A program made the position numbers and the translations under genes. A stretch of 64,000 nt of DNA from a virus, in IMG/VR virus record IMGVR_UViG_3300025626_000019, positions 1 through 64,000 of that record; one strand, written 5' to 3'. Each line of letters starts with the position of its first letter. Position 1 is the stretch's first letter. Below are positions 4,560-22,100 of the stretch, piece after piece. The notes beneath the pieces were generated by a model. The model did no database searches, had not been told where the DNA came from, and worked only from the letters and a program-made list of their open reading frames with translations.

Positions 4560-7500
4560 ATGGCAAACGATAAGAAATTTATAGTCAAGAACGGACTCCA
4601 ATCAGAGAATAACGTTCTAATTGGCACTTCCGCAGATGACGGTACAAATAAACTACAGGTTACTGGAAGCTCTAAGCTAACTGGTGCTGTTGAAGTAACA
4701 CAAGCAACTCCATCCACAGCATCTCTTACTGCGACTAATAGTGGTGGTAATGGTGCTATTATTGCTAACTTTGTTGGCGACAGCAATTCACTACAGATTA
4801 CTAATTTTGCTACTGGCGACTACAGCATTCTAAATGGTGGTCAAAGTAATGGTATTAAGTTTTATGATAATACTGTTGGTGTTGAAGTTATCTATAATAA
4901 TGCGGTTGACTTAGAATTTAACACTTCTGGTATTGACTTCAAACGTGCGCCAACTGTTAGTGGTTCCATTATTTGGTACGCAGGCAATGATGGTTCTGGC
5001 TCTGGTCTTGATGCTGATTTACTTGATGGTATCGATTCTCTATCGTTTGTGCGCTCTGACCAAAACGATACGTTGGACGGTGATTATATCATCACTGGTA
5101 ATCTTACAGTGCAAGGTACAAGAGTTGAAGTTCAATCAGAAACAGTTCTAATTGCTGATAATATTATTACACTCAACAGCAACTTTCTAACTGGCGTTCC
5201 AACAGAAAATGCTGGGTGGGAAGTCTCTCGTGGTGATTTGGCAAACTCATCTATTCAATGGGATGAAACAAACGACTGGTTTAAACTAATCTCAGCAGGT
5301 ACTGATTTAGGTCGTATCATCACAACAGCGGATGAAGGTGCTGGCAATGGGTTTGACGCTGATACAGTAGACGGATTAGAAGCGGCACAATTCTTACGTT
5401 CAGATGCTAACGATACTGCCACTGGCAACCTTGAACTGCAAGGTACAGTCTCTATTGGTAACGATACTGGTTCTGCTTTGCTTACTATGAAAGGTGCTGG
5501 CAACAACCGCGTTCTTTCTTCTGATAATGGTAACATTGGTTTCCTTGGCTCTAGCCTTAACTATGCTACTGGTGCTTACATGGACGCATCTGGTAATTGG
5601 GTTGTAGGTAACGATATTGTTGGTGCAAGGTTCCTTGACGGTGATAATAATGCATATTTTGCAGAGCCAGCAGCAAACTCAATCTTCAACAATCTTGGAC
5701 TTGACAGTGATCTTTTCCATAATGGAAATATTGACACTAAAGTATCTTTTGACACAGACATTATAAAACTTGACACTGATGGAACAACAAGACTAACACT
5801 TACTAACACTGGTGCTTTGTTTGCCAATGACGTTAGTGCGCCTCGTTACTTAGACAGTGGTGACAATACATATTTCGGTGACTTTGCTGGCACGTCAGTA
5901 ATGAACAACATTGGAATTGATACAAGTATCTTCCATAATGGCGACACAGACACAGATATCAATTTTGGTACTGACACAGTAAACATAAACACAGGTGGTG
6001 CTACAAGATTTACGGTTACTGATACTAGCGTAACTTCTACAGTAGACATGATTTCACCAAGGTTCGTTGATGCAGATAACAATACTTACTTAGCTGATCC
6101 AAGTGGCGCATCAGTGTTTAATTCACTAGGGCTTGACTCAGAACTATTCCATAACGGTGACACAGATACAAAACTTGCTTTCGGAACAGATACTATTGGT
6201 TTGGAAACAGGTGGTGCTGAGAGACTTGGAATATCAGATAGTGCGGTAACCGCTACAGTAGACATGGTTGCGCCAAGGTTTGTTGACTCAGGAGATTCAA
6301 ACTTCTTTGCAGACCCTGCAGGAACATCTGTGTTGAATGATATTGGTATTAATGATCAATTATTCCACAATGGTAATGTAGGAACAAGTCTTGCTTTCGG
6401 CACAAACACTATTAATTTATCTACTAACGGATTAAGTAGGGTTAGTATCAGTGATACAGAAGCTGTGTCTACAGTACAACTTCGTGCGCCTGTATATTAC
6501 GCTCCAACTGGAACTACATACAGACTAGACCTTGACAACACTACAACCTCTTTGGCAGTTAATGCTAAGGTTGTTGTTGGTAACGTTGGTGATGACGCAA
6601 GATCAAATGACACCACAGGCGAAGGCGGTATTACACTCGCTCCTTATGGAACCACAGGTGCATCTTCAAATCCTCTGATGTCAATTTCTGGTGGTGCTGG
6701 TGGTTTGCCACTAACATCATTAAACAAGTATGGCATGGGCAACAACCCATTCGTTGTTGGCAACCTAATCAGCGAGACTAGAGTTAACGGCGCAGTCGCA
6801 ACTACTCTCAGAGGCGATTCATTCGGCAACATGTACCAAGTCATCGACAATGATATGACTTGGGCTATTGCAGATTCGAATGCAAACTTCTTGCTTACTG
6901 CTAATGCAACTGATGGCGATGTGATCATTGGAGATCAAGCGGCTACATACGCAACAATGGACGCAACCCCAGTAGTTGGTTCAAAAACAAATAGTATTCT
7001 TCATGTAAGTGGTTCAGTACAACTGACTAGCAATGATGATGCATTTGCAGTTGGTGTTGGCACAGCTACTTTCCTTAAAGGTGATGAGCTAGGCTTCGGA
7101 TCAGGTGGTGGTTTCTATATGGACGACACCGCTACGGTTAAAGTTCGTGGTGATAAAGATGTTTCTACTGCTGGCAATATGATAGCCGCGCAGTTTAAAG
7201 ACAGCAATGATGATACTTTCTTTGGCGACTTTGCTTCAACCTCAAGAATGAATAACATTGACATCTCTGGTACAATCAGGCATGATGGTGACGTAAACAC
7301 AAACATCGGCTTCCCAGCAAATGATCAAATCGCTCTGACAACTGGTGGAACAGCAAGACTTACTGTTGCTGACACATCTGTTACGTCATCGGTTGATTTA
7401 ATTGCACCAAGGATGCTAGATTCCGCAAATAATTCTTATCTTGTTGATCCATCAGGAACATCGGTAATGAACCGCATTGATCTTGATGATTACATTCGCC

Positions 7501-7895
7501 ATAATGGTGATAATGATACGTACTTCGGATTTTCTGGTAATGACATTTTCAAAGTATTTGTTGGTGGCACACAAAAAGTTAACATCGATAGCGACTCCAT
7601 CGACTTCTCTCAAAACGTCTATGCTCCTGCGTATTATGACAGCAACAACAATGCGTATTACCTAGACCCAGCATCCACATCTGAGTTGAACAGCATCAAC
7701 ATTGATGATTGGATCAGTCATAGAGGTGATCTTACTACTCGTTTTGGTTTTGACGCTAACAACAGATTTAGAGTACAGACAGCTAACGCAACTCGCTTGT
7801 CTATAGATGCAGACTCCGCTGATTTCACAGTAGGTGTCTATGCACCTCGTTACTACGATTCAGATAATAGCGCATTCTACCTACGATTCAGATAA
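4560..7895 (+). CDS. Giant tail-fibre-like protein, segment 1 of 4 (N-terminal)
   Basis: The ATG at 4560 (MANDKKFIVKNGLQSENNVL) follows GGGGAG and opens a 1111-residue frame. It carries a typical fibre N-terminus, a GSGLDADLLDGIDS unit, and then repeated blocks of the form RF-V-D-x-x-[ND]-N-[ST]-Y-x-[AG]-D-[PF]-[AS]-G-T-S-x-[ML]-N about every 70-80 residues. The frame ends prematurely inside a 28-base direct tandem duplication (7853-7911) that shifts the reading frame by one. Removing one copy joins it in frame to the next segment. The four segments together form one coding region of roughly 2850 codons. Confidence 0.8.
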   Translation: MANDKKFIVKNGLQSENNVLIGTSADDGTNKLQVTGSSKLTGAVEVTQATPSTASLTATNSGGNGAIIANFVGDSNSLQITNFATGDYSILNGGQSNGIKFYDNTVGVEVIYNNAVDLEFNTSGIDFKRAPTVSGSIIWYAGNDGSGSGLDADLLDGIDSLSFVRSDQNDTLDGDYIITGNLTVQGTRVEVQSETVLIADNIITLNSNFLTGVPTENAGWEVSRGDLANSSIQWDETNDWFKLISAGTDLGRIITTADEGAGNGFDADTVDGLEAAQFLRSDANDTATGNLELQGTVSIGNDTGSALLTMKGAGNNRVLSSDNGNIGFLGSSLNYATGAYMDASGNWVVGNDIVGARFLDGDNNAYFAEPAANSIFNNLGLDSDLFHNGNIDTKVSFDTDIIKLDTDGTTRLTLTNTGALFANDVSAPRYLDSGDNTYFGDFAGTSVMNNIGIDTSIFHNGDTDTDINFGTDTVNINTGGATRFTVTDTSVTSTVDMISPRFVDADNNTYLADPSGASVFNSLGLDSELFHNGDTDTKLAFGTDTIGLETGGAERLGISDSAVTATVDMVAPRFVDSGDSNFFADPAGTSVLNDIGINDQLFHNGNVGTSLAFGTNTINLSTNGLSRVSISDTEAVSTVQLRAPVYYAPTGTTYRLDLDNTTTSLAVNAKVVVGNVGDDARSNDTTGEGGITLAPYGTTGASSNPLMSISGGAGGLPLTSLNKYGMGNNPFVVGNLISETRVNGAVATTLRGDSFGNMYQVIDNDMTWAIADSNANFLLTANATDGDVIIGDQAATYATMDATPVVGSKTNSILHVSGSVQLTSNDDAFAVGVGTATFLKGDELGFGSGGGFYMDDTATVKVRGDKDVSTAGNMIAAQFKDSNDDTFFGDFASTSRMNNIDISGTIRHDGDVNTNIGFPANDQIALTTGGTARLTVADTSVTSSVDLIAPRMLDSANNSYLVDPSGTSVMNRIDLDDYIRHNGDNDTYFGFSGNDIFKVFVGGTQKVNIDSDSIDFSQNVYAPAYYDSNNNAYYLDPASTSELNSINIDDWISHRGDLTTRFGFDANNRFRVQTANATRLSIDADSADFTVGVYAPRYYDSDNSAFYLRFR

Positions 7896-9210
7896 TAGCG
7901 CATTCTACCTAGACCCAGCAACCACATCTATCTTAAATGTTGTGAGAACAAATCAAATCCTAATGGATGGAACTTCTCTAAGCATTGACTCGCCATCAGG
8001 TCCTAAGGGGACTATTATGGTTGAAGGTGAAAGAGACGGTTATGCTGGCTATATGATTAGCAACGACTGGGGCTTCATATCAAGTGGTGCTACAGAAATG
8101 GGTCTGTATAACGAGACTGACAATGAATGGTCACTGACTGCAAACAGAAACAACTTTACAAGACTGCATTCAAACAACATTCACCAAATTGGTGCTGAAA
8201 ACGGTTATGGTTCTGCACCCAACTCTATGCGCTCACCTATCTTCTACGACTTGAATGACTCAGCATTCTATGCTGACTTAGCAGGGCAATCCAGATTAAA
8301 GTCTGTTAAGGCTGGGGATAGTGCGATCTTCAACAACACTACGTATCCTCTTGAGGTTAAATCTGCTCAAGAACGTATGATTGTAATCCAAAACACATCG
8401 GCTGATGCCAACTTCCCATCGATCTTGCACAAGACTAGAAACACTCGTTCTACTATGGCACTTTCTTTTAATGGGATTGGTGAGCGTTTCTGGTTCGAAG
8501 AAAACGGCAACATCCAAGCTTATGGCGCTGGTATCTTTGGTAGCTTGGCGCTTAACGGTGGTAACGAAGACCTTGGCTTGTTGAAAACATACGGCTCTGG
8601 TCTTGCTGACATGAAAATGTTTGACGCCTCAGATTATTGGGACAAACGTGTTGTTCAGCCTATGCAAGGTGAAGAAAATAACGCAACAGGAACAACTAGT
8701 GAATATGTAAAGAACGGTGACGGACCTTTTGCCGCTAGTTATGCTCTGAGAACAAATGCTTTCAGAAGCTTTGACTCTGACTACATCCCTGTTGAACCGG
8801 GCGAAGAAATCTATGCTGAAATGGCGGTAAGACTTATCACTGGTACAGGTGGTAACTTCTTCCTTGGTGTTAGACAATACGATAAAGACAAGAACCCTAT
8901 CGATGCGAACGAAGGTATTGTATACTTTGCGGCATCCTCTGTTAACGTAACTTCTACTTCTTGGAATGAGTATAAGGGATACCACACAGTACCAACTAGC
9001 CACACAGCGTACAATGGTTCTGATGGGCTTGGTGTTAGATATGTTCGTCTAATTGCTCTTATGAACCATAGTGCTGGTGGTGCTACACGAGAATTCGGAC
9101 CTCCTATTCTGAAAAGGTCTGACGTACAAGGTAAAATCAAAGCAGATTCGATGGCTATTGATAATAGCGGTACAATCGGTGAAGATCAAAGCAGATTCGA
9201 TGGCTATTGA
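7834..9210 (+). CDS. Giant tail-fibre-like protein, segment 2 of 4
   Basis: This continues segment 1. Meaningful homology begins about 7881 (STYDSDNSAFYLDPATTS); the residues before that are out of frame with the true protein. The segment contains the same YDLNDSAFYADLAGQSRLKS repeat type. It also has a beta-rich stretch near 8640-9110 (PVEPGEEIYAEMAVRLITG) that resembles a carbohydrate-binding or fibre knob domain. It ends early at a 49-base-period tandem duplication (9136-9230). It has no independent ribosome-binding site, so it is best read as part of one gene. Confidence 0.65.
   Translation: MSMHLVTTIQIIAHSTYDSDNSAFYLDPATTSILNVVRTNQILMDGTSLSIDSPSGPKGTIMVEGERDGYAGYMISNDWGFISSGATEMGLYNETDNEWSLTANRNNFTRLHSNNIHQIGAENGYGSAPNSMRSPIFYDLNDSAFYADLAGQSRLKSVKAGDSAIFNNTTYPLEVKSAQERMIVIQNTSADANFPSILHKTRNTRSTMALSFNGIGERFWFEENGNIQAYGAGIFGSLALNGGNEDLGLLKTYGSGLADMKMFDASDYWDKRVVQPMQGEENNATGTTSEYVKNGDGPFAASYALRTNAFRSFDSDYIPVEPGEEIYAEMAVRLITGTGGNFFLGVRQYDKDKNPIDANEGIVYFAASSVNVTSTSWNEYKGYHTVPTSHTAYNGSDGLGVRYVRLIALMNHSAGGATREFGPPILKRSDVQGKIKADSMAIDNSGTIGEDQSRFDGY
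7853..7911 (+). repeat. Exact tandem duplication, 28-base period, frame-breaking
   Basis: The segment beginning CTACGATTCAGATAATAGCG occurs twice, at 7853 and 7881, as two adjoining 28-base units with 3 further matching bases. The period is not a multiple of three, so it shifts the frame of the fibre gene. Confidence 0.9.
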
Positions 9211-9230
9211 TAATAGCGGTACAATCGGTG
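9136..9230 (+). repeat. Tandem duplication, 49-base period, frame-breaking
   Basis: A 46-base identical segment (ATCAAAGCAGATTCGATGGC...) occurs at 9136 and 9185, separated by three bases. The 49-base offset shifts the fibre frame by one. Confidence 0.9.
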
Positions 9231-10015
9231 TAAACCTTGATGTTCTTGGTACTATTACAGGCGATACTGTCATAGGTACTAACGTTGACGCTACGAACTT
9301 CCGTGATGCTTCAAATTCTACTTACTCTTTCAATCCACGTACTGGTGGTAAAGTTGGTGGTACATGGGATTGGACAAACGGTAATATTACAAATGTAAAC
9401 AATATCACATTCAATGATCCCGGCCCGAATGAAGGTCTTCGTTGGACTGGCGGTAGTGAATGGGCAATATTTGAATCGCCAGACGATTTGACAACAAATA
9501 GCTTGGGTAATCTACAGTTTACATCCGACAACTTGGGTGTCGCTGGATATGCGGCTGTAAGTCGTGCTACTATCACGACATCTGGTGATATTGTTGCGGC
9601 TCGTTACATGGATGCAACAAGGTTCCGTGACTCTAACAACTCAGCATATTACGCAGACCCAGCAGGAACTTCCGTATTTAACGAAGTACGTGCTGATGAA
9701 TATATCAGACACAATGGTGATACTGATACATATATTAGATTTGTCGGTAACGATGACATGCAACTTGTTTCTGGTGGTCGCCAAATGCTTCGCATGGCAG
9801 AAGGAACTAATCCAGACAGACTAAGATTTGTTACGGATAGTAACTGGACAGATGCTAACGGTGATTGGAATATGTCACGAAACGTTAGTGTTAGTGGCAC
9901 ACACACTGTTCTAAACGGCGCGTATGCTAACATCTTCTACGACTCGCGTATGCTAATATCTTCTACGACTCTGATGATAATGCTTATTACGGTGACTTTG
10001 GTGGTACATCTGTGA
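9158..10015 (+). CDS. Giant tail-fibre-like protein, segment 3 of 4
   Basis: This is the continuation after the second frame break. The same IDNSGTIG words occur at the end of segment 2 and the start of this one because of the duplication. It contains FRDASNSTYSFNPRTGGKVG and FRDSNNSAYYADPAGTSVFN repeats. It ends at a third duplication, of 26-base period (9920-9971), where the two copies differ by one base. No separate start signal was seen. Confidence 0.65.
   Translation: MIIAVQSVKIKADSMAIDNSGTIGVNLDVLGTITGDTVIGTNVDATNFRDASNSTYSFNPRTGGKVGGTWDWTNGNITNVNNITFNDPGPNEGLRWTGGSEWAIFESPDDLTTNSLGNLQFTSDNLGVAGYAAVSRATITTSGDIVAARYMDATRFRDSNNSAYYADPAGTSVFNEVRADEYIRHNGDTDTYIRFVGNDDMQLVSGGRQMLRMAEGTNPDRLRFVTDSNWTDANGDWNMSRNVSVSGTHTVLNGAYANIFYDSRMLISSTTLMIMLITVTLVVHL
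9920..9971 (+). repeat. Imperfect tandem duplication, 26-base period, frame-breaking
   Basis: GCGTATGCTAACATCTTC and GCGTATGCTAATATCTTC begin adjacent 26-base units that differ by one base. The offset breaks the fibre frame. Confidence 0.85.
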
Positions 10016-13000
10016 TGAATACTGTTAGAGCTAACCGTTTCGAAATGGGTAGTGCTTCTACTTACATTGATAACGTATCAGGTCAATACGGTACAATTCG
10101 TGTAACTGGTAATACTGGTGGATATGCAGGTTATGCGATCAATGACGATTGGGTATTCATGTCATCTGGCGCAGGGGTTGCTGGTATCTACAACGATACG
10201 AACAATCAGTGGGCTACGATCTATCGCCAAGCAGGTGATACAGAACTTCATTGGGGTGGCGTAGAACAAGCCTCTACCAAAGATGGTTTCTTCTTAGGTA
10301 CTAATCAAGTTCGTTCGCCTATCTTCTATGATAGCGACAATACAACTTACTTCGGTAACTTTGGTGGAACATCAAGGTTCTTGGGTTTAACAGTTGATAA
10401 TGTCATCACAGGTAGTGTTTCTGGAAGTTCTGGGCAGTTGCGCAGTAAAGACAATAGAATTATTGAGCCAAATGAAGATAGTGCAAGCCGCCTAACGTTT
10501 GGTTTCACATCATGGAACAACAATAACACAGCACCATATGCTGATTACTTACACCTTAGATCATACGGTGACGCTTCTGGTGGATCAGACAACTTACTTA
10601 TGTTTAAGAAGTCTGGTCGTGGTATGCGTCTATGGCAACAAACTTGGAACTCAGGTACAGCATATTCTGCTTACTCTGATCTGGCTATCTACAACGCCAA
10701 CCCAGGTGGTGGTTCAAGTTCTAACTTCTATGCCGCTAGTTTCATCGATGCAGATGATACATCCTTCTTTGTAAACCCATCGGGCATATCTAAGATTAAG
10801 CACCTAGAAGTTGCTGGCGAGAACCTTAACGCATCTTACTCACATGCGGCAATCGAAGTACGTGAGTACAACTACGGTGGCGCACAAACAGATAACGATG
10901 CTACAGCACCAAGGATTGGTTTCCATTGGGGTGGCAGAGTTGCTTCTCAGATCAGACTAGCTTCTAACTCTGAAATTCAGATCAGAAACAATCCTGGTAC
11001 TGGCTATGAAAGCTTCCGTGCTAATAACATCTACTCACAGGGTAGTACATATGCTGGGCGTTACTATGATCGTGACAACACAGCATATTATGGAGACTTT
11101 GCATCTACATCTATCGTTAATATTCTTGATGTTCGTGGAGAAATCTACAACGATGGTTGGTTCCGTAACGATACATCTGGTCGTGGTCTTTACAACACAC
11201 CAAACAACATGCACTTCTATTCTAGTGATAGTGACAGTTGGAGAATTCGTTCTGCACAGAATACAATATCTCTTGAGTTCTCAACGAACGCTGATGTGTA
11301 TCGTGGTAGAGTATATGCAACTAACTCTGACGAGATTGGTTTCTTGTCGCAAGATAGTGGTTGGTCGCTAAGAACTACCAATAGTGTCGTAGATGCACAC
11401 CATAGCTTCTACGCTCCTATCATGTACGATAGAGACAACACGTCTTACTTTGTGAACCCATCTAGCGACTCACTCTTTAATGGTGACATTAGAGCAAATA
11501 GATTTGTACACAAAGATGATGTTTCACAAAACGACGCATTTGGTATATACTTCTCATCTAATGAATCTGACTCTTACGCAATTTACAGAGAACCAGGTGG
11601 TTGGTCTAACCCATATCCAGACTTGAAAATTGCTTTCCACACTGGTATCCGTATGGGTGCTTATCATAGTTATAACGGCATTCGCTTCATGAACGATGCG
11701 AATAGTACAACTCAGGTTATGTCAATCAACAACGGTTCTGATCCTTTGGGTCAAAATGACGTATACGTTAACAACGCATTACAAGCTGGTGGTTCGTTAC
11801 GCGCACCTATCTTCTACGACTCAAATAACACAGGTCGTTATACAGACCCTGCGTCTACATCTCAAATGGGTACAATCGAATGGGATCAACTTAACGCAAG
11901 AGATATGGGCGACTTTATTACCTTATACGGTGACAACAGCACAAACCACTCAATCTCTTCAAGAAACGCTTCTGGTAGCAATGCTGATGATATTCGTATC
12001 AACTCATATGGTTCTGTGTATATTAACCTAGACTCAAACGTCAACAATAGTTCTGGTGCTGACTTTATGATTGGTCGCCACGGTCAGGCAACTGGTACTA
12101 TTAATAACACCGACTTGTTTAGAGTTTATGGCGATGCAAACTATGCTTACTCAGCATTCAGTTTCCGTGCGCCTATTTTCTACGACTCGAACAACACTGG
12201 GTTCTATTGTGATCCGTCAAGTGCATCTAACTTCAACACGAGTGTTCGTGCCAACGAGATTTATGCTCGTAACTGGTTCCGTAATGACAACTCTGGCGAA
12301 GGTTTGTATAACCAAAATACAGGCTTCCATGCATATTCGTATCAAGGTAGATATTTTGCACTTACTGGCAATAATAACAACAGTGATGTTCACGTACAGC
12401 TTAGAGCAACGTATAATGGTAACATTCGCATGTGGCTACACGGTGCGAGTAACAACTACTGTGGCTATCTGAACACTGGTGGGCAGTGGATATTGCGCAC
12501 ACGAATGCAAGATGGTTATTCTCCTGCAATCGAATTCCGTGAAGAAGGTAACGAAAGTTGGACAGGTAACCCAGGGAACGATGTTGGTAAGATTGAATAT
12601 CACTCAAACCGTATGTATATTGTTGCTGGTGCTAACTCTAATAGAATTTGCCAATTCCGTAGAGATGGTTCTGACAAATCATATGTTGATAACAACGGTC
12701 TATATGTTGGTACAGCTACGTCAGCAAGATGGGCTGACCTTGCGGAAAGATATTCGGCAGACGACATGTATGAAAATGCAACTGTTATGGGTATGAACCT
12801 TGACGGTGACTCTGAGATTACTAAGTGGGAGCCTGGAATGCCTCTCGTGGGTGTTATCTCAACAAACCCAGCGGTTCAAATGAACGATATGGGAATTGAA
12901 CCCGGAAGTAATTCCGTGAAAGCAAGAATGAACCCATTCATTGCTCTTAAAGGTCGTATCCCATGCCTAGTAAGCGAAGACGTCAAAAAAGGTCAGTGGG

Positions 13001-13125
13001 TAATCCCTGCGGGCGACGGTAAAGCTAAGGGTGTGGACTATGGAACTCCCGGTATAAATAGCTATGAGATTATTGGTATCGCCCTTTCTGACAGTAAGGA
13101 CGGTGAAGTAGAGGTGAAAGTATAA
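10012..13125 (+). CDS. Giant tail-fibre-like protein, segment 4 of 4 (C-terminal)
   Basis: This 1037-residue C-terminal part has many further YDSNNTGFYCDPSSAS-type repeats, FRNDTSGRGLYN blocks and RAPIFYDS units. The last 140 residues (ARWADLAERYSADDMYENAT, then GVISTNPAVQMN and KKGQWVIPAGDGKAKG) match the terminal domain seen on many phage fibre and peptidase-like structural proteins. The stop at 13,123-13,125 lies one base before the next ATG, so it is tightly coupled to the Cys-tail gene. Confidence 0.8.
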   Translation: MMNTVRANRFEMGSASTYIDNVSGQYGTIRVTGNTGGYAGYAINDDWVFMSSGAGVAGIYNDTNNQWATIYRQAGDTELHWGGVEQASTKDGFFLGTNQVRSPIFYDSDNTTYFGNFGGTSRFLGLTVDNVITGSVSGSSGQLRSKDNRIIEPNEDSASRLTFGFTSWNNNNTAPYADYLHLRSYGDASGGSDNLLMFKKSGRGMRLWQQTWNSGTAYSAYSDLAIYNANPGGGSSSNFYAASFIDADDTSFFVNPSGISKIKHLEVAGENLNASYSHAAIEVREYNYGGAQTDNDATAPRIGFHWGGRVASQIRLASNSEIQIRNNPGTGYESFRANNIYSQGSTYAGRYYDRDNTAYYGDFASTSIVNILDVRGEIYNDGWFRNDTSGRGLYNTPNNMHFYSSDSDSWRIRSAQNTISLEFSTNADVYRGRVYATNSDEIGFLSQDSGWSLRTTNSVVDAHHSFYAPIMYDRDNTSYFVNPSSDSLFNGDIRANRFVHKDDVSQNDAFGIYFSSNESDSYAIYREPGGWSNPYPDLKIAFHTGIRMGAYHSYNGIRFMNDANSTTQVMSINNGSDPLGQNDVYVNNALQAGGSLRAPIFYDSNNTGRYTDPASTSQMGTIEWDQLNARDMGDFITLYGDNSTNHSISSRNASGSNADDIRINSYGSVYINLDSNVNNSSGADFMIGRHGQATGTINNTDLFRVYGDANYAYSAFSFRAPIFYDSNNTGFYCDPSSASNFNTSVRANEIYARNWFRNDNSGEGLYNQNTGFHAYSYQGRYFALTGNNNNSDVHVQLRATYNGNIRMWLHGASNNYCGYLNTGGQWILRTRMQDGYSPAIEFREEGNESWTGNPGNDVGKIEYHSNRMYIVAGANSNRICQFRRDGSDKSYVDNNGLYVGTATSARWADLAERYSADDMYENATVMGMNLDGDSEITKWEPGMPLVGVISTNPAVQMNDMGIEPGSNSVKARMNPFIALKGRIPCLVSEDVKKGQWVIPAGDGKAKGVDYGTPGINSYEIIGIALSDSKDGEVEVKV
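13053..13060 (+). promoter_or_regulatory. Candidate late promoter TATAAATA before the Cys-tail genes
   Basis: An exact TATAAATA lies inside the end of the fibre gene, 67 bases before the ATG of the first Cys-tail protein. It is well placed to add late transcription of the Cys-tail and rSAM operon. It could also be a chance match within coding sequence. Confidence 0.45.
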
Positions 13126-13126
13126 T

Positions 13127-13540
13127 ATGCCAACATATGCACAATTGAATAGTAGTATGCAATCTAAGGCGGGCGCACAACTACGAACCTTTGATAGGGG
13201 CATTAATATTGCCATTGATTCTTGGGTTCGTATTTGGGGTTTCGATAGCACTTATGGATCATGGATGATTGTTAACGGCTATGGTTGGTATGGTCGTTCG
13301 AACCATTACCACAGATTCGAATACGTTAACGCAAACAACACATTGTTTAATAACTACCTTGATGGTGGAATATATACTGGTGGGATTATCCGTTCCCAAG
13401 ATGTTATTGATTCAATTAACAGTGTTGTGCGAAGAGCGGTTGATTTGTGCGAAGGCAGAATAACCAACAGAAGTATGACTGCACGTCCATGTCACCAAAG
13501 TTGCCATAGTAGTTGCCACACATCGAGAGGTAGACGCTAA
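13127..13540 (+). CDS. Small protein with C-terminal (CHxS)3-RGRR tail, copy 1
   Basis: A protein of 137 residues with no family recognised. The body shares GAQLRTFDR, YVNANNTLFNNY, DGGI, RRAVDL and EGRI with the next gene, so the two are paralogues. It ends in three tetrapeptide repeats, CHQS-CHSS-CHTS, followed by RGRR. It lies directly behind the giant fibre gene and directly before the rSAM genes, and overlaps copy 2 as TAATG. Inference: a late virion protein or peptide substrate whose Cys/His tail is modified by the neighbouring rSAM enzymes. Metal binding by the CH repeats is the main alternative. Confidence 0.8.
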   Translation: MPTYAQLNSSMQSKAGAQLRTFDRGINIAIDSWVRIWGFDSTYGSWMIVNGYGWYGRSNHYHRFEYVNANNTLFNNYLDGGIYTGGIIRSQDVIDSINSVVRRAVDLCEGRITNRSMTARPCHQSCHSSCHTSRGRR

Positions 13541-13956
13541 TGACCGCAGATAGAGGTGATATTAACAGTTGGGTGCAAACATATAGTGGCGCACAACTCA
13601 GAACATTTGATAGAACTATTACATATACGGTAAATACGTATGTTCGATATTATCGGTTTGATAGTACGTGGGGTGGGGCGTTGAGGCTTGACGGTAGACA
13701 ATATACTACAAATACCAACTTTACTAGAAGATATGAATACGTAAACGCAAACAATACCCTATTCAATAACTATATTGACGGTGGTATTAATGGCGGTCAG
13801 CTTATGTATGCACAAGATATCGTAGATACTGTAGAAGACAACGTAAGAAGAGCGGTTGACCTAATTGAAGGTAGGATTAATAGTACGTATCAAGTAATTA
13901 ACGCATGCCATGCTAGTTGCCATAGTAGCTGTCATACATCAAGAGGAAGACGTTAA
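13540..13956 (+). CDS. Small protein with C-terminal (CHxS)3-RGRR tail, copy 2
   Basis: A protein of 138 residues, paralogous to the preceding gene. The bodies have diverged considerably, yet the last 12 residues are identical (SCHSSCHTSRGRR, preceded by CHA here and CHQ in copy 1). Such conservation of only the tail and a central YVNANNTLFNNY block points to a functional tail. It starts at a TAATG overlap and ends one base before the first rSAM gene. No signal peptide or membrane segment was seen. Function unknown; the proposed role as rSAM substrate is inference from context. Confidence 0.8.
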   Translation: MTADRGDINSWVQTYSGAQLRTFDRTITYTVNTYVRYYRFDSTWGGALRLDGRQYTTNTNFTRRYEYVNANNTLFNNYIDGGINGGQLMYAQDIVDTVEDNVRRAVDLIEGRINSTYQVINACHASCHSSCHTSRGRR

Positions 13957-13957
13957 A

Positions 13958-15133
13958 ATGACAATGCAAAAATCATATTGTAAGCAAATGAGATATTCTG
14001 GTCCAGAGAGTTTGTCTCCTGATAGTGCATCCAAGTTTGATGTTCTCATTCAGATGGAAGTTTTGGCTGGATGCGATCACGGTTGTTTGGGTTGTTTTGT
14101 CGATAAGAACATCGATCCTGATATGAACCAACAGATCATCGACAGAGCAAAGGAACTTGCTGATGGTGTAGCCAGAACTGGTCTTAACCTCAGAGAATTT
14201 GTTATCGGACCTACAGACTTCTTCACAGCCAAGAACACAGAGTCAGTATTAAATAACTCAGTAGTCCAAGAGATTATGAGAGAACACACAGGCGCTCGTA
14301 TTGCCGCTCCTGCTAAGTTTGATATTGCTACTATGGATAAAGTAAAAGAAATCTTTGCTGTCCTTGATGACGAAGACAAATACCGTCGTGACATGATCAT
14401 TGAGTTTATTATGCCAATTGGCAGAGTAGAACAGATGTTGAACGATGACGAATATTTCGACAATGTTATGGAAAAAGTAGAGTTCTTTAAGAATAATACA
14501 CCAAAGCAAATGGATTGGTCTTGGACGCTTCAAGCATCTAATGTTGTTGGTAAGAAGATTGACAAAGAAACATACAATAAGATCATTCAAAAATCAGTAA
14601 ACGAATACGAAACTATTGTAGAGATGAACCCAGCTTTCTCAAGGGCGAGATCACAGTTGGTACAGCGTAGAAACCTATTTGGTTGGAATGATTTTCTTGG
14701 TAAAGTTATTGACAAAGATAATGCACAAGAAACTGTTATGTCAATGGCTAACTTGTATTGTAACTCAATCAACTTTGTTGGTCTTACAATCGTACCAGGA
14801 GAAAACGGACCTACCACACACTTGAATGTAATGCTACATGAGCAAGCATTCTTCTTAAACAATAAAAACCTAGACGTCACAGGTCTTACATTCGAAGAAA
14901 TATTGGATCGTAAAAATGAGCTAGTGACGAAGGGTATAAATAGATCAAGTAAGGTATCTGATTGTAACGGATGTCAATTCGCGGTAGCATGTGCTTCCCG
15001 ATTGATTTTTGAAGCTCAAGAAACTTTAAACGTTGATGGATGTGTTTTAAACAAAGATGTCCTTGCGGAATATAACCCATACGATTGGACTTGGAACGAC
15101 GATGCGATGGAAAAACTAGGAGTGACATCATGA
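13958..15133 (+). CDS. Radical SAM protein A1 (GPTD-type)
   Basis: The start is placed at the ATG after AGAGGAAG, two bases beyond the previous stop, giving 391 residues. The rSAM iron-sulfur motif CDHGCLGC uses C39, C43 and C46. Instead of a GGE motif it has VIGPTDFFTAKN, shared by all five + strand rSAMs. A C-terminal C336-x2-C339-x5-C345 with a later Cys in NVDGCVLN resembles a SPASM/twitch auxiliary cluster, typical of peptide-modifying rSAMs. It is the first gene after the Cys-tail proteins and overlaps the next gene as ATGA. Substrate unknown; the Cys-tail proteins are the prime candidates. Confidence 0.85.
   Translation: MTMQKSYCKQMRYSGPESLSPDSASKFDVLIQMEVLAGCDHGCLGCFVDKNIDPDMNQQIIDRAKELADGVARTGLNLREFVIGPTDFFTAKNTESVLNNSVVQEIMREHTGARIAAPAKFDIATMDKVKEIFAVLDDEDKYRRDMIIEFIMPIGRVEQMLNDDEYFDNVMEKVEFFKNNTPKQMDWSWTLQASNVVGKKIDKETYNKIIQKSVNEYETIVEMNPAFSRARSQLVQRRNLFGWNDFLGKVIDKDNAQETVMSMANLYCNSINFVGLTIVPGENGPTTHLNVMLHEQAFFLNNKNLDVTGLTFEEILDRKNELVTKGINRSSKVSDCNGCQFAVACASRLIFEAQETLNVDGCVLNKDVLAEYNPYDWTWNDDAMEKLGVTS
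14935..14942 (+). promoter_or_regulatory. TATAAATA octamer inside rSAM A1
   Basis: An exact late-promoter word lies within the A1 coding sequence, about 190 bases before the next start. It may be an internal promoter or chance. Confidence 0.25.
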
Positions 15134-16215
15134 TAGGCCAACACCTTTATTTTTTGAATAACAGAAAGTATATTACAAACTCAACTAACCTCGAAACTGT
15201 ATTTTTCGAGATGAACTCATTTTACCACACGAAAACACCTAGAACGGTTTGCATGATTGAATCATCAATGCCAGACAGCAAAATCGTCGAGTATGATGTA
15301 AGAGTACGTGCCGATAGCATTCGCGCAGGTGCTGGTGTTGACATCATTTTCAAACCTTGGGAAGAAGTTTGTACTAGTGAGTTTATCCAAAATAGTGAAA
15401 AGTATATTCTTGTAGCTTGGGAAGAAGAAGATCAAATTCAAATCCATGCAAGATACGCTGCTGGATTGCTGACTGCATCTGGTTTCTATCCTGATGCCTC
15501 TACGGCAACAATCAACACCATGGTTGGCGATTTTATGGAAAAAATCTTCGACTGCGATAGTATGTTTACATTCATGTCAGCGGCTCCTGCTGTTCAAGAT
15601 ATGTCTGATACTGTTGAAGCTATTCTCAACAACCCAGAAACACCACCATTCGACGTTACATATCAAAATGGCAAGAACTTCAGCTATGACTTCTTGTTCT
15701 TCTTAAATGAATACTACCCATGTGCGGAAGTACAATCATTGTTGATTGAGAAGTTTACAATTCATAGTGCTGATATGGCACAAGATGTTATGGAACACTT
15801 TACATCACGTCGCCACTATTTAGCCTACATCCTTTCTGTAATTGATTGGATGAATGCTAATGATCTACCAGTAGACAAGCAATTGTTTGTTAATGAGGTT
15901 TACATGAAAGCCGCTAATAAGGGCAACTATCAAATTGCGTTTTATAAATTAGAAGAACTATGGAATACAGTAAAAGATAACGAAGCTTTCATTCTTGCCC
16001 ACACTGATAAAAGAGATAATACAAGAGATGGTTGGGAATTTTGGGATATGTATACCGAAATAAGCAATGTATTCCCTATTGTTAAGAAGGTGCTTGAGCG
16101 CAGTTTTGACATGGATAACCTAACAGAAGATTTGAGACTTATTAACACTGATGTTCAGTTCTTCTCTAAGAGACAGAATAGAATTCCATACTTGATACAC
16201 AAATACACATTATAG
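15130..16215 (+). CDS. Unknown protein in the rSAM operon (361 aa)
   Basis: The ATG at 15,130 overlaps the A1 stop (ATGA), so translation is probably coupled. The protein is soluble-looking and acidic, with no motif I recognise, no signal peptide and no membrane segment. The C-terminal half is helix-like (YLAYILSVIDWMNANDLP, FYKLEELWNTVKDNEAF). Its position between rSAM A1 and A2 in a tightly packed operon suggests a partner, scaffold or co-substrate of the modification system. That is inference from context only. Confidence 0.8.
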   Translation: MIGQHLYFLNNRKYITNSTNLETVFFEMNSFYHTKTPRTVCMIESSMPDSKIVEYDVRVRADSIRAGAGVDIIFKPWEEVCTSEFIQNSEKYILVAWEEEDQIQIHARYAAGLLTASGFYPDASTATINTMVGDFMEKIFDCDSMFTFMSAAPAVQDMSDTVEAILNNPETPPFDVTYQNGKNFSYDFLFFLNEYYPCAEVQSLLIEKFTIHSADMAQDVMEHFTSRRHYLAYILSVIDWMNANDLPVDKQLFVNEVYMKAANKGNYQIAFYKLEELWNTVKDNEAFILAHTDKRDNTRDGWEFWDMYTEISNVFPIVKKVLERSFDMDNLTEDLRLINTDVQFFSKRQNRIPYLIHKYTL

Positions 16216-16225: not shown

Positions 16226-17128
16226 ATGAATGATAATGAAAATAACTTGAACCCAGATAGAGAATTTGACGATCATAAATTTTCAGAGCGTGAGAAGAAC
16301 TTTAAAGCTTACACTTTACCTCTTGCGCCCCAAGATTTGGTTGCGATCTATAAGGAAAAAGAAAAAAATAAAGATTTTATTCTGTACGTAGATTACCACA
16401 GGACTAAAGAAAAGTTGAGTGCTAAGCATATTATCATATACTTGGCGAATACTAACTTTAAGGCTGGGTTTACTTTCTTGGATGAAGAATTGGTTACGGA
16501 ATACATCAAATCAGATTTTATGGTTGATTGTCCAATTCTTGTACGCATGCTCTCAGTTATCGTTAGAATGAGATTGCACTACGATATTAACGATGCCGAA
16601 AAGAAGTTGCTTCTTTTGTTTCCAGAAGAAAAAGTACATGAATATATCGAAGGTAACCTCGAATTAGTTGATGAACTAATCGAAACTATTAGAGATGCCG
16701 TGCCGTGGGCGATGACAAATCTATATGAAAACCTAAATGAACAAGACAAAGAAATTGAGGTAGAACTCAAGAACTTTGTGGGTGATATTGAGGTTTATGA
16801 TAAGCCATCGAACTGTGGACCTAATGTTGCGCGTTTCATCACAGAAGCGTGGGATGGATTTTTGTGTATCGTTCACAACATGGGTGTTAGTACGACGTAT
16901 AATAAAGCAGTTTACAATGCACAACCAAAGTATTTTGGCAAAGATTTGTACTACATCATGAATGAGACTAGGGTTATTGATCAGATTATGGCGATGTTCC
17001 CCGACTGGTTTTGGGTTAAAATTGAGACTCTAGACTTGAATAAGTTGCTAGAGGAATCTGAAGGCGACCACATCGAAGAATCTATCGACAAGATCGAAGA
17101 TAAGTTTGATGATAGTCCATCTGAATAG
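16226..17128 (+). CDS. Unknown protein in the rSAM operon (300 aa)
   Basis: It starts at an ATG after GGATG, ten bases after the previous stop. It is an acidic protein with a charged N-terminus (EFDDHKFSEREKNFKAY) and a very acidic C-terminus (EESEGDHIEESIDKIEDKF). The middle is helix-rich (ILVRMLSVIVRMRLHYD). No known family was recognised. It overlaps the start of rSAM A2 by about 20 bases. Conservation of this pair between rSAM genes in other phages would show whether it belongs to the system. Confidence 0.8.
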   Translation: MNDNENNLNPDREFDDHKFSEREKNFKAYTLPLAPQDLVAIYKEKEKNKDFILYVDYHRTKEKLSAKHIIIYLANTNFKAGFTFLDEELVTEYIKSDFMVDCPILVRMLSVIVRMRLHYDINDAEKKLLLLFPEEKVHEYIEGNLELVDELIETIRDAVPWAMTNLYENLNEQDKEIEVELKNFVGDIEVYDKPSNCGPNVARFITEAWDGFLCIVHNMGVSTTYNKAVYNAQPKYFGKDLYYIMNETRVIDQIMAMFPDWFWVKIETLDLNKLLEESEGDHIEESIDKIEDKFDDSPSE

Positions 17129-18131
17129 CACATATGCGGGATATTACTCTTATAATGCAGACGAAAGCCCCATAAACACAGACTTTCTTAGAACAGAAAT
17201 CAATCTGGACATATTGCATGGCTGTAGCCAAATGTGTCCGGGTTGCTTTATCCCTCGAAAGAACTTGACTAAGGCAGACAACCTAGAAACTCTGTATAAT
17301 CTTCTTATCAAAGGTGCGTATTACCCCGACGAAATAACCGTCGGACCTACAGACATATTTGATGCTGAGAACTTTAGTGATATTATGAACCATCCCTATA
17401 TGGAAAAGCTCTATGGGATTTCAGCTATTGGTTTCACGTCTACGCTTACACAACCATACGCAATGGTCAAAGATAAACTTGCAAAGATATGGTCTTTGTA
17501 TAAAAACATTCACCGTGTTCCTGATATTGACTTTAAGATTGTTTTAGATATAGATAAGTATCTTGATGGAGATAACGATCATTTCTATAAGAATTTAGAA
17601 TTGTTTAAACTAGGCTCAGTTCAATTTCGTGTCAATTACCACAAAGATATATTCAAAAGAATTTCGTATAATGAATTAGCTCAAAGAGTATTTGATGATT
17701 TCAATGCTCCTGTTGTCATAACACCTTCTTTCCTTACTGATAGGAACGTTAGAGGTAAAGTAAGTCAACACCTAGAAAACTTTAGACGTGAGATGGTAGA
17801 ACAAAAAATCGACAAACAGTGGCTAAACCTTTACACGTTCTTTGATGCTAAGTTTAATGGATATGGTTGCCAAAACTATAGTTTTTATAATAACAAGCTA
17901 TACCTCAACCCATTCTTATACGACGTGATCATACAAAGAACACCACAGTTCGAAACAACTATGGATGCTAATACTTTATATGATAATATCGAATATGCAC
18001 AACAAGTTGATGATTGTAATGGTTGTGAATACATGATGAGTTGTGCTGAGCGCAACATACACTTGTATATGGAGTCGAGAGGATTAGGCAGTTGTGTTGC
18101 TCTTAAGGAGTACATGTATGCCTCTAATTAA
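17109..18131 (+). CDS. Radical SAM protein A2 (GPTD-type)
   Basis: About 340 residues. The start is taken at the ATG at 17,109 inside the end of the previous gene; a TTG lies just before it. The cluster motif CSQMCPGC uses C39, C43 and C46. The family marker TVGPTDIFDAEN follows. The C-terminus has DDCNGCEYMMSCAER and a further Cys in RGLGSCVALKE, a SPASM-like C-x2-C-x5-C pattern. The segment YLNPFLYDV parallels YLSPF[IM]YE in A3 and A4. It is a paralogue of A1 and A3-A5 and probably an iron-sulfur, S-adenosylmethionine-dependent peptide modifier; substrate unknown. Confidence 0.85.
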   Translation: MIVHLNSTYAGYYSYNADESPINTDFLRTEINLDILHGCSQMCPGCFIPRKNLTKADNLETLYNLLIKGAYYPDEITVGPTDIFDAENFSDIMNHPYMEKLYGISAIGFTSTLTQPYAMVKDKLAKIWSLYKNIHRVPDIDFKIVLDIDKYLDGDNDHFYKNLELFKLGSVQFRVNYHKDIFKRISYNELAQRVFDDFNAPVVITPSFLTDRNVRGKVSQHLENFRREMVEQKIDKQWLNLYTFFDAKFNGYGCQNYSFYNNKLYLNPFLYDVIIQRTPQFETTMDANTLYDNIEYAQQVDDCNGCEYMMSCAERNIHLYMESRGLGSCVALKEYMYASN

Positions 18132-19278
18132 GAACAACCTACACTACGAAATGACCACAGAGACGCAAACTAAGCCAGTGAGCGCAGTGAAGATACAACT
18201 TGATGTCTTGGATGGATGTCACCACAAATGCCCTGGGTGCTTCGTACACAGACGTGGCAACAGTAGTGATGAGCATCAGCTAGAGAATGCCAAGAGGTTT
18301 ATACGAGACATTACTGATCAAGGTATTCTTGTTGATGAGATGCTTATAGGTCCGACTGACTTTCTTGCCTCTGAAAACTTCTATGAGGTTATGCCACATC
18401 TGTTAGATATTATCAATGATAATAGCCCAATACTTGCATTCGTGTCAACCCTTATTGATGGAGATATTAAAAGGTTTTGTCAATACATTACTGATAATGT
18501 AAACCTTGACACAGAGATTGAAATTGGTATTGCGACTAACCCACACAAATTCTTCAATGAAGATTATATTGAACACGTATCAGAAATACTAAACTACATA
18601 GACAAGAACCTCAAGCATGAGGTCACATATACGTTCGTTGTTAATATAAAAGATTATGGGTTAGATTACGAAGCATTGCATGATCAAGCTGTAAAACGTT
18701 TTGATACCATATTAGACTTCATTCCTTCTGTGTCTCGCTCTCACAAGGCAAACATAATCTTAAAGACCCTTGATGAATTTAATGAATACTTTAGCACATG
18801 GCATCGTGAATCTAAACTAAACAATATTATGGTAGATCACAGCCATGCAGGAATGAACTATACGGTGTTGAACTACAAAAGAGGCGAGTGGTATCTTAGT
18901 CCGTTTATGTATGAAAATATGGCTATCTACCATGACATGTTCAAAGTAGATAACTTTAACTCAGTTAATGTTATGGTGGAGCAACAAATAGAAAGCGCTA
19001 AGGGAACTGAGTGTGAAGATTGTCCCTTGTTCTTCTCTTGTTACAACAGAAAGATCATAATGCTAAGAGATTACCTTGGCGTGGATCGTTGTATTGCTCC
19101 TAAGGAGAACATGCTAAATAACATACATAACTATAACGCACCCGCCCAAACAATGTATCAATGGGATGGGTACACTGTAGAGAAAGATAAACAAGGCTAT
19201 CGAAAGAAGTTTCTGGTTACTGAGGATGATGACCCAGAATTAAAAAGAATTGAGGATATTTCTTATGTTAAACAATGA
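18118..19278 (+). CDS. Radical SAM protein A3 (GPTD-type)
   Basis: The start at ATG 18,118 follows AAGGAG by a good spacing, overlaps the end of A2, and gives 386 residues. The cluster motif CHHKCPGC uses C34, C38 and C41. The family marker is LIGPTDFLASEN. The conserved IPSVSRSHKAN and YLSPFMYEN segments are shared with A4. The auxiliary-cluster-like motif is ECEDCPLFFSC, with a later Cys in GVDRCIAPKEN. After this it has an unusual charged C-terminal extension of about 50 residues (KDKQGYRKKFLVTEDDD). Role inferred as for A1. Confidence 0.85.
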   Translation: MPLIKNNLHYEMTTETQTKPVSAVKIQLDVLDGCHHKCPGCFVHRRGNSSDEHQLENAKRFIRDITDQGILVDEMLIGPTDFLASENFYEVMPHLLDIINDNSPILAFVSTLIDGDIKRFCQYITDNVNLDTEIEIGIATNPHKFFNEDYIEHVSEILNYIDKNLKHEVTYTFVVNIKDYGLDYEALHDQAVKRFDTILDFIPSVSRSHKANIILKTLDEFNEYFSTWHRESKLNNIMVDHSHAGMNYTVLNYKRGEWYLSPFMYENMAIYHDMFKVDNFNSVNVMVEQQIESAKGTECEDCPLFFSCYNRKIIMLRDYLGVDRCIAPKENMLNNIHNYNAPAQTMYQWDGYTVEKDKQGYRKKFLVTEDDDPELKRIEDISYVKQ

Positions 19279-20422
19279 CTGGAAAGACATTGTAAGTGGC
19301 GGTGGAGTGGGCGAAGAGTTCACTTCTATAGACAGTATGAAGCAGTACAAGATACAAGTCAATCTTGAGATACTTGAAGGTTGCTCGTATATGTGTCCCG
19401 GTTGTTTTGTGAAACGCAAAGGCAATTGGAACCCAAGATCAATCACGACGTTTCATTCATTGGCATATGAATTAAAAGATAGAGACGATATTGTACTAGA
19501 TGATATTGTAATAGGTCCGACTGACTTCTACGGCGCACAGAACTTAGAAGAGATCATCAACAACCTAAAACTTGCTGATGCTATCCTGATGATGCCAGAA
19601 GACAATAGAAACATTCAGCACAACTGTTCTATACTTGGCTCGTTATCTGAGAAAGATATAGAAAGTAAAATTAAGTCTATTGAGAACTCACCCTTGGGCA
19701 AAGTTGTTGAGGCGTGGGATGTTCAAATTGCACTAGACTTAAACCGTCTAATGAACGATCCAGAATACTTAAATGCATTAGACGAAAGAATTGAGACTTT
19801 TAAGAATAGTTCTCTGAACTTCGAAATAAGCATGGCTACTAATATCGTACAAGGAGTAGAGGACATATTGTACCCTGCTATCGATTTTGTTCGCTCAAAG
19901 TATGAAACAGTTATTGAAGTTTTGCCCTCTGTTGTCAGATCATTTAATCATAGTGCAAAGCACGGAAACAAGCTATTCGAATGGAATGACATGTTATCTC
20001 GTTTAGCTGTAGACCCACATCGTTTTAAAAATAAGTTTCATTTCCTACAAGGGGACGTATCACATAAAGCATTCCACTATTCTGTGGTAAGTATATATCA
20101 TGGTGATATGTATTTGTCTCCTTTCATATACGAAAACGCTCAGATACACACAGATGATTTTAAAGTTGATGACAGTTGGCATTGGTTGCCAGATGCAGAT
20201 ATATCTGATTACATTCTAAAAAAGAAAGATGAAGTTGTTGTATCGCAAATGGAAAAGAGTGGAGACAAGGAATGTGGAAGCTGTAAGTACCTAAACATAT
20301 GCGTGAATAGAATGGTTCCTATGATAATGGATACTGTGTTTGATGGACGTAAAGAATGCATCCTAAATAAAGATGTTATTGCTTTATTTGATGATGAGGT
20401 TTACCATGGGAATAGTTACTAA
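19265..20422 (+). CDS. Radical SAM protein A4 (GPTD-type)
   Basis: The ATG at 19,265 follows GAGGAT, overlaps A3 by 14 bases, and gives 385 residues. The rSAM motif CSYMCPGC uses C40, C44 and C47. The marker VIGPTDFYGAQN, the segment LPSVVRSFNHS and the segment YLSPFIYEN are all shared with A3. The C-terminal ECGSCKYLNICVNR, plus a Cys in GRKECILNKDV, fits an auxiliary iron-sulfur site. It is in the same operon as the other A-group genes. Confidence 0.85.
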   Translation: MLNNDWKDIVSGGGVGEEFTSIDSMKQYKIQVNLEILEGCSYMCPGCFVKRKGNWNPRSITTFHSLAYELKDRDDIVLDDIVIGPTDFYGAQNLEEIINNLKLADAILMMPEDNRNIQHNCSILGSLSEKDIESKIKSIENSPLGKVVEAWDVQIALDLNRLMNDPEYLNALDERIETFKNSSLNFEISMATNIVQGVEDILYPAIDFVRSKYETVIEVLPSVVRSFNHSAKHGNKLFEWNDMLSRLAVDPHRFKNKFHFLQGDVSHKAFHYSVVSIYHGDMYLSPFIYENAQIHTDDFKVDDSWHWLPDADISDYILKKKDEVVVSQMEKSGDKECGSCKYLNICVNRMVPMIMDTVFDGRKECILNKDVIALFDDEVYHGNSY

Positions 20423-21425: not shown

Positions 21426-22100
21426 GAATGTTCTTGGGAATGAATCGTTAATTTTACCCCATTGCTCCAAGCTATCTACGAATATGTTCTTAAAAGAAAC
21501 ATCAACATCTTCCATTGGATAAATCGCCATTAGGTCATTTCCATAATTCAGTCGAACTTCGTATGGCTCATCTTTCAGAGGAAACAATAAGAATACGTTA
21601 ATCGCATGTTGATCGTAGAAGTTAAGAACTCCCGGTGCTACAAGTATTCCATGTTTACGCAAATCTTCGCTATAATGAAACTCACAGTTCATAAAGTCCA
21701 CACGCTTCTTAGTTTTTAAATACCAAGGCGCTTCAATTTTTAGCACAGCATATCCTGGGTAAAGATCATCACCATATTGTCTTTGCTCGTGCATACCAGT
21801 ACCAACTTGATGCGAGTGCAATGGGCTTGCGGATGAAACTTTCCCATCAGGTGTTACCCTAAAAATCATGTCAGACCACAACTTCATTACAATAGCTTTT
21901 TGCATGTATTGGGTAATGCCAGGGCAAGCTTTTACAGTAGGGGTTGGAACCATAATGCCAGACTTGGAGTTATAGACAGTGTACATCGTAACCAAGTTCT
22001 TCCACCACGATGGCTTTCTACTCTTAGATGTCCATTTAAAATTTGCAAAAACACTTTTATCATAAGTGTACGCTTCAATCTCTAGTTTTTTTCTTCTCAT
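21387..22100 (-). CDS. Unknown protein, DUF6065-like, last gene of the - rSAM operon
   Basis: About 237 residues. The start is placed at the ATG at 22,100 after AGGA; a TTG six bases upstream is possible. The block KACPGITQYMQKAIVMKLW, then VLKIEAPWYLKTKK and VLNFYDQHAINVFLLFP, resembles the phage DUF6065 family from memory; this is a tentative match. It overlaps the end of rSAM B4 and is convergent with rSAM A5. Its place in the - operon suggests a role linked to the rSAM proteins, but no catalytic motif is evident. Confidence 0.75.
   Translation of the reverse strand: MRRKKLEIEAYTYDKSVFANFKWTSKSRKPSWWKNLVTMYTVYNSKSGIMVPTPTVKACPGITQYMQKAIVMKLWSDMIFRVTPDGKVSSASPLHSHQVGTGMHEQRQYGDDLYPGYAVLKIEAPWYLKTKKRVDFMNCEFHYSEDLRKHGILVAPGVLNFYDQHAINVFLLFPLKDEPYEVRLNYGNDLMAIYPMEDVDVSFKNIFVDSLEQWGKINDSFPRTFLGRYYTRKRTER

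What the first reader, a model, noticed from the sequence alone, without database searches (positions are those of the whole stretch)
13127..13956. Two diverged paralogues with the identical C-terminal tail (CHxS)3-RGRR
The bodies share only scattered blocks, but the final SCHSSCHTSRGRR is identical and preceded by CHQ or CHA. Three exact tetrapeptide repeats CHxS with a basic end look like a modification or recognition tag or a metal site. Placement exactly between the giant fibre gene and the rSAM genes is striking.
Basis: seen in the sequence. Interest (0 to 1): 0.9.

Follow-up and report, generated by a model that had tools for sequence, protein, structure and literature searches.

The report
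Phage fibre-locus proteins with conserved CHxS tail
Many phages, and some predatory bacteria, carry a protein beside their fibre genes that ends in the same 16-residue tail (CHxSCHxSCHxSRGRR), always with a cassette of radical-SAM enzymes that probably modify it chemically; the system appears not to have been described as a unit before.

Summary
The exact C-terminal tail CHxS-CHxS-CHxS-RGRR occurs in at least 126 distinct phage proteins (76 clusters at 70% body identity). It is encoded with one conserved cassette: cupin, SPASM-like rSAM "B", tagged protein, a protein of unknown function ("DUFA"), then rSAMs F, D, E, with optional C-type rSAMs and 2OG-Fe(II) oxygenases. All 50 tagged records of 40 kb or more contain rSAM genes, and 49 of 50 hold a close rSAM-B orthologue. 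Among relatives picked by portal gene instead of tag, the tag occurs only where rSAM-B does (6 of 8 against 0 of 11). Six cultured jumbo phages carry it. Predatory bacteria carry chromosomal copies next to S74 fibre genes. In the Atu_ph07 virion proteome, one structural cluster begins at CDS 170, the tagged protein.
Best explanation: a fibre-associated virion protein whose C-terminal CHxS repeats are the recognition and/or modification site of a multi-rSAM maturation pathway, perhaps making His-x-Ser cyclophanes or Cys thioethers. The association is shown; the modification, its chemistry and the attachment role are inferred. It resembles the His-Xaa-Ser (Hxs) system but fails its family models.

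The parts
4560..13125 (+). Giant tail-fibre coding region upstream of the tagged genes; in this record split into ORFs 4560-7895, 7834-9210, 9158-10015, 10012-13125
   Evidence: one ORF of 2830-3196 aa in relatives L005, L007, L088
13127..13540 (+). Tagged protein 1 (137 aa), ends CHQSCHSSCHTSRGRR
13540..13956 (+). Tagged protein 2 (138 aa), ends CHASCHSSCHTSRGRR
13490..13537 (+). C-terminal tag of protein 1 (16 codons)
13906..13953 (+). C-terminal tag of protein 2 (16 codons)
13958..15133 (+). C-type radical SAM protein (CDHGCLGCF)
15133..16215 (+). Accessory protein of unknown function; resembles FLC6 gp73 by eye and position only
   Evidence: no family match
16226..17128 (+). DUFA, conserved partner next to the tagged gene in 44 of 44 testable loci; unknown function
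17106..18131 (+). C-type radical SAM protein (CSQMCPGCF)
18094..19278 (+). C-type radical SAM protein (CHHKCPGCF)
19250..20422 (+). C-type radical SAM protein (CSYMCPGCF)
20373..21425 (+). C-type radical SAM protein (CEFKCKGCF)
22075..23214 (-). Radical SAM F (TLFENCHLNCSFC)
23526..24482 (-). Radical SAM E (NPTYYCNFSCDFCYL), 44% identical to FLC6 and SNUABM_DT01 homologues
24460..25497 (-). Radical SAM D (KPTEACNFKCTFC), SPASM-like, weakly DynA-like
25488..26516 (-). Radical SAM B (KTTETCNLNCAHCFT), the marker enzyme of the system; weakly DarE/PapB/DynA/HxsB-like
26467..26928 (-). Cupin / JmjC-like protein, partner of radical SAM B
27021..27605 (+). 2OG-Fe(II) oxygenase (PF13759), optional member

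Best explanation
The two genes encode small fibre-locus proteins, probably virion components, that are substrates of a phage-encoded radical-SAM maturation pathway. Their invariant C-terminal tail CHxS-CHxS-CHxS-RGRR is the element the pathway recognises, and very likely also the site it modifies: three equal CHxS units receive the same change three times, while the basic RGRR and the chain end dock the enzyme. SPASM-like rSAM B (with the cupin and DUFA) is the most likely first enzyme. rSAMs F, D, E, the C-type copies and the 2OG oxygenases would add further changes. The likeliest chemistry is a crosslink, either His-x-Ser three-residue cyclophanes or Cys thioethers, giving a rigid, protease-resistant or metal-binding end on an attachment fibre. 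Shown: the tail, its conservation, the cassette and their co-occurrence. Inferred: modification, order of enzymes, chemistry, place in the virion.
For: The tail is invariant at the exact chain end over 76 body clusters, with Ser coded by both AGY and TCN codons. rSAM genes are in 50/50 tagged records and close rSAM-B orthologues in 49/50. DUFA plus at least one rSAM lie within 4.5 kb in 44/44 testable loci, in a recurring order CUP-B-TAG-DUFA-F-D-E in unrelated phages. Control by portal gene: tag in 6/8 records with rSAM-B and 0/11 without, p=0.001. rSAM-B is in only 8 of 50,697 phage records; the seven full records, which are six phages, carry the tag next to it (inspected; MF403008 is a duplicate record of Atu_ph07). 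rSAM-B and D are closest to peptide-crosslinking SPASM maturases. The tagged gene lies near fibre or virion structural genes. The Atu_ph07 virion proteome cluster starts at CDS 170, the tagged protein (PMC6102473). Bacterial copies sit by Peptidase_S74 fibre genes.
Against: No modification, enzyme activity or virion location was measured here. All rSAMs score far below the cut-offs of characterised maturases, so function by homology is weak. Five to nine rSAMs for 16 residues seems excessive, so the bodies or other fibre proteins may also be substrates. The virion evidence is a cluster boundary quoted in a paper, not the protein table. The tagged bodies have no structural relative in the PDB.
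Confidence: 0.62

Rival explanations
1. The tail is only a docking tag (like a RiPP leader placed at the C terminus): it recruits the enzymes, but the modified residues lie in the tagged body or in the neighbouring giant fibre.
For: Many enzymes (nine rSAMs in the window) for a short tail. RGRR and the chain end are as invariant as CH, and a variant with RSRR exists. Bodies differ widely while the tail does not.
Against: Three exact repeats of a His-x-Ser/Cys unit are more than a docking site needs; repeated units in rSAM systems can be the modified core (TvgA in PMC9062424). A divergent contig keeps CHSS repeats but has no RGRR (L049).
Confidence: 0.2
2. The tail is a metal site (Zn or Fe bound by Cys/His), perhaps a trimeric fibre-tip needle; the rSAM cassette serves another purpose and is only a neighbour.
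For: Cys-His pairs at fixed spacing at the end of a strand. T4-type fibre tips are known to bind iron through His motifs (own knowledge, not tested).
Against: Does not explain the conserved Ser at every fourth position, the invariant RGRR-stop, or the strict joint presence with rSAM-B and DUFA across phages and bacteria.
Confidence: 0.1
3. The cassette makes a small toxic or antibiotic-like peptide: the tail is cut off after modification and released, as in RiPP pathways, and the location by fibre genes is incidental.
For: rSAM-B and D resemble DarE and DynA, makers of antibacterial peptides.
Against: No protease or transporter is among the recurring cassette families found. Bodies of 120-300 aa are large and conserved. 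The tagged protein opens a virion-protein cluster in Atu_ph07.
Confidence: 0.07

Closest known systems
His-Xaa-Ser (Hxs) system: HxsA repeat protein with rSAM maturases HxsB and HxsC (NCBIfam TIGR03978, TIGR03977)
   Same: His-x-Ser repeats in a substrate encoded beside two or more rSAM genes (PMC9062424 cites Haft and Basu for the system)
   Different: Cys before each His and an RGRR end; phage fibre loci; many rSAMs plus cupin and DUFA. rSAM-B scores 33.6 bits against the HxsB cut-off 370, rSAM-D 24.4 against the HxsC cut-off 267.9. No tagged protein reaches any NCBIfam cut-off
rSAM/SPASM peptide-crosslinking maturases (DarE, DynA, PapB, FxsB, YhhB, AmcB)
   Same: rSAM B and D align with them over most of their length and keep Cys-rich C termini
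   Different: Far below every family cut-off; substrate is a 120-300 aa protein with a C-terminal tail, not a short peptide with an N-terminal leader
Radical SAM cassettes noted in jumbo phages and pelagimyophages (332-Vera PMC12390700; FLC6 PMC8066314; S13 PMC11898562; PMC7029224)
   Same: Very likely the same gene cassettes: FLC6 and S13 were inspected directly; the other two are inferred from the text. Reported in structural or host-recognition regions
   Different: The papers list single genes without a function; in the passages read, none mentions the tagged protein, its tail or the system as a unit
Mosaic adhesive trimer (MAT) fibres of Bdellovibrio (PMC10769870)
   Same: Predatory bacteria carrying the tag cassette have Peptidase_S74 phage-like fibre genes beside it
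   Different: No rSAM genes or CHxS tail were seen in the passages read

Membership tests
His-Xaa-Ser (Hxs) system | Substrate matches the HxsA model | tested here: not met
   No HxsA match for the window, FLC6, SNUABM_DT01, Atu_ph07, predator or L049 tagged proteins in NCBIfam
His-Xaa-Ser (Hxs) system | Maturases reach HxsB and HxsC cut-offs | tested here: not met
   rSAM-B 33.6 bits vs 370; rSAM-D 24.4 vs 267.9
His-Xaa-Ser (Hxs) system | Repeated His-x-Ser in the substrate, rSAM genes adjacent | tested here: met
Radical SAM superfamily | CxxxCxxC motif and Radical_SAM domain | tested here: met
   PF04055 over cut-off for window 24460-25497; other window copies below cut-off but with the motif; 47 of 50 tagged records over cut-off
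SPASM-domain maturases | C-terminal SPASM domain TIGR04085 over its cut-off of 27 bits | tested here: inconclusive
   FLC6 rSAM-B 28.8 and predator rSAM-B 28.7 pass; window rSAM-B 24.7 and rSAM-D 22.9 do not
RiPP pathway | Ribosomal substrate gene always with modifying enzymes | tested here: met
RiPP pathway | Demonstrated post-translational modification | not testable with these tools
   Needs mass spectrometry
Virion structural protein | Present in purified virions | tested here: inconclusive
   Atu_ph07 virion cluster 'CDS 170-215' starts at the tagged gp170; the protein table itself was not readable

The most novel reading that the evidence does not exclude
Phages of several unrelated lineages and predatory bacteria share a mobile pathway that chemically remodels the tip of an attachment fibre: radical-SAM enzymes turn a genetically encoded CHxS tail into crosslinked, possibly metal-binding, non-protein-like chemistry used to grip or breach the prey envelope. 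This would be a new class of post-translationally built adhesin or injection tip.
Probability: 0.35. Interest if true: 0.95.

Novelty: new variant of a known kind. Interest (0 to 1): 0.86.

Why it matters
Radical-SAM modification of a phage attachment-locus protein was not found in the literature searched. The result gives a concrete substrate (a 16-residue tail), a marker enzyme (rSAM-B), a conserved partner (DUFA) and six cultured phages in which to test it, and it offers an explanation for the puzzling rSAM clusters reported in jumbo phages and pelagimyophages. The presence of the same cassette beside S74 fibre genes in predatory bacteria points to a shared way of attacking Gram-negative cells. 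It could also supply new peptide-modifying enzymes with a portable C-terminal tag.

Tried and rejected
(1) tblastn of the window protein and of one main-family protein against cultured phages: no match. The bodies diverge too fast; rSAM homology found them instead. (2) Structural search: the main-family model is good (pLDDT 86.6), but there is no PDB match by Foldseek or VIA-align. Viral matches are other phage proteins, including the Atu_ph07 tagged protein. The window model is weaker (pLDDT 68.9) and gave nothing. (3) Filing it as Hxs: rejected, models not met. (4) A cellular-genome scan gave 19 hits. Three (Frankia, Pseudoalteromonas, Bordetella) are not ORF ends, have no rSAM and were dropped; one is truncated. 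(5) Records with rSAM-B but no tag (17 of 27) looked like counterexamples. For the large ones (G050, G058, G059, G063, G064) the contig ends before the expected tag place (coordinates); the others were not all checked one by one. (6) Supplementary proteome tables of Atu_ph07 and RP31 could not be read. (7) The main jumbo-phage review does not mention radical SAM at all.

Full report
WHAT IS THERE. The two ORFs at 13127-13540 and 13540-13956 exist and end in CHQSCHSSCHTSRGRR and CHASCHSSCHTSRGRR. They sit between a giant fibre and an rSAM gene. The 16 tail codons differ at 8 synonymous sites and at only one non-synonymous site, the free x position. The window lies in a virus record of 70,335 bases with T4-like portal, sheath, terminase and major head genes. 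In relatives the upstream fibre is one ORF of 2830-3196 aa; in this record it is broken into four overlapping ORFs.

THE TAIL IS WIDESPREAD AND INVARIANT. From all loci I collected 126 distinct tagged proteins in 76 clusters (70% body identity) and 7 groups with no BLAST-detectable body similarity. In all 76, C and H of the three units and the G of RGRR are invariant; the Arg residues are kept in 75 and the fourth position of each unit is Ser in 73-75. The tail ends at a stop codon. C, H and R were fixed by the patterns, so conservation there is partly built in. But Ser is coded by both AGY and TCN codons, and tagged proteins reached through enzyme homology alone have the same tail, with RSRR in Atu_ph07 and Phosso. 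The two main body families share only the last helix and tail by profile comparison. Both models suggest helix, beta hairpin, helix, then the tail; in the better model (pLDDT 86.6) the last strand runs straight into the tail, which is itself low-confidence. No known structure matches.

IT BELONGS TO A CASSETTE. HMMs built from window, cultured-phage and bacterial members show one recurring order: cupin - rSAM B - tagged gene - DUFA - rSAM F - D - E, with optional C-type rSAMs and 2OG-Fe(II) oxygenases. In the window it is rearranged: tag, tag, C, DUFA, C, C, C, C on the plus strand; F, E, D, B and cupin on the minus strand; then a 2OG oxygenase. Of 44 tagged loci with at least 4 kb on each side, 44 have DUFA and at least one of the five rSAM families within 4.5 kb.

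LINKAGE TESTS. In 50 tagged records (48 IMG/VR contigs of 40 kb or more, FLC6 and SNUABM_DT01), all have rSAM genes, and 49 have a close rSAM-B orthologue (E below 1e-113); the exception has a distant one (E 5e-45) and a different tail end. As a control not chosen by tag, I took 19 relatives of 17 kb or more by portal gene: 8 have rSAM-B, 6 of them the tag. The other two contigs end before the expected tag place. The 11 without rSAM-B have no tag (Fisher p=0.001). Nine of those 11 have no PF04055 match at all; a 221 kb one has two rSAMs that do not match the rSAM-B profile, and one has a sub-threshold match. The cassette is therefore accessory and appears to be gained and lost as a unit, in line with the remark in PMC7029224 that pelagimyophage host-recognition clusters differ by rSAM cassettes. 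Among 50,697 phage records only 8 have rSAM-B; one is a faecal fragment, and the seven full records (six phages) have the tagged gene directly downstream (MF403008 is a duplicate record of Atu_ph07 and was not opened separately).

BEYOND PHAGES. A scan of 84,980 prokaryote genomes found 16 hits that are true ORF ends, one of them truncated. Nine are in predatory-bacteria genomes or a close look-alike (Bacteriovoracaceae, Bdellovibrionaceae, Halobacteriovoraceae); the rest look like phage contigs in metagenome bins. Some lie on contigs of 219-382 kb among transporters and other cell genes, and next to genes with a Peptidase_S74 fibre chaperone and, by eye, prepilin-like starts. The distribution is patchy: 8 of 290 sampled genomes of the phylum. 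Bdellovibrio uses S74 fibres on its surface to recognise prey (PMC10769870). I read the shared feature as attachment to Gram-negative cells; this is inference.

HOW IT PROBABLY WORKS. rSAM-B and D align along most of their length with SPASM peptide maturases, several of which form crosslinks (DynA, DarE, PapB), but stay far below family cut-offs. Three equal CHxS units at the chain end, constant company of such enzymes, and an invariant basic end suggest a substrate that is recognised and modified at the tail. His-x-Ser fits the three-residue cyclophane motif; His-containing motifs are known for such enzymes (Sugiyama 2022, cited in PMC10206099). Cys thioethers are equally possible. For location, the Atu_ph07 virion proteome paper gives a structural cluster 'CDS 170-215'; CDS 170 is the tagged protein and CDS 171 is rSAM-B. 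That is suggestive, not proof.

WHAT IS KNOWN. Papers on FLC6, S13, RP12/RP31 and 332-Vera list the enzymes one by one, and the 332-Vera paper calls so many rSAM genes 'highly unusual'; none found here describes the tail, the substrate or the cassette. The nearest named system is His-Xaa-Ser (Hxs), whose models are not met. The library searched holds open-licence papers only, so an earlier description elsewhere cannot be excluded.

LIMITS. Contigs are often fragments and partly redundant; the HMM families were seeded with some of the loci later counted; no experiment was possible.

Noticed in passing
L235 15959-17101, L236 5658-6692, L237 361-918 (predatory bacteria): Peptidase_S74 fibre genes beside the cassette; two have N termini that look prepilin-like, suggesting pilus-anchored phage-type fibres.
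   Followed up: partly
L049 560-1141 (504 kb contig): Divergent tail CHTNCHSSCHSSCHSSCHGSSGGW without RGRR, beside a distant rSAM-B and a DUFA homologue: a relative with a different chain end and more repeats.
   Followed up: partly
window 4554-13122: Giant fibre is split into four overlapping ORFs in different frames, while relatives have one ORF; sequencing errors or real decay.
   Followed up: partly
window 23526-24482 (minus): rSAM E carries a tandem duplication (INQANAHPVTHKDL/INQANAHPVTHKDF) absent from FLC6 and SNUABM_DT01 homologues.
   Followed up: no
L236 16629-18308: In a predatory bacterium the cassette has an extra rSAM with a B12-binding domain (below cut-off) and more 2OG oxygenases, hinting at extra modification steps.
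   Followed up: no
BFVD A0A8S5USJ8, A0A8S5USJ7, A0A8S5USV2 (Myoviridae sp. ctijX18): Three large proteins (504-660 aa) of one phage match the body fold of the tagged proteins; whether they carry the tail is unknown.
   Followed up: no
window 30904-31704: ORF whose sequence starts like a nucleotidyltransferase and ends in a cupin-like stretch (by eye), after the cassette.
   Followed up: no
L131 12104-13317: Two dihydrofolate-reductase-like genes lie inside the FLC6 cassette; role unclear.
   Followed up: no
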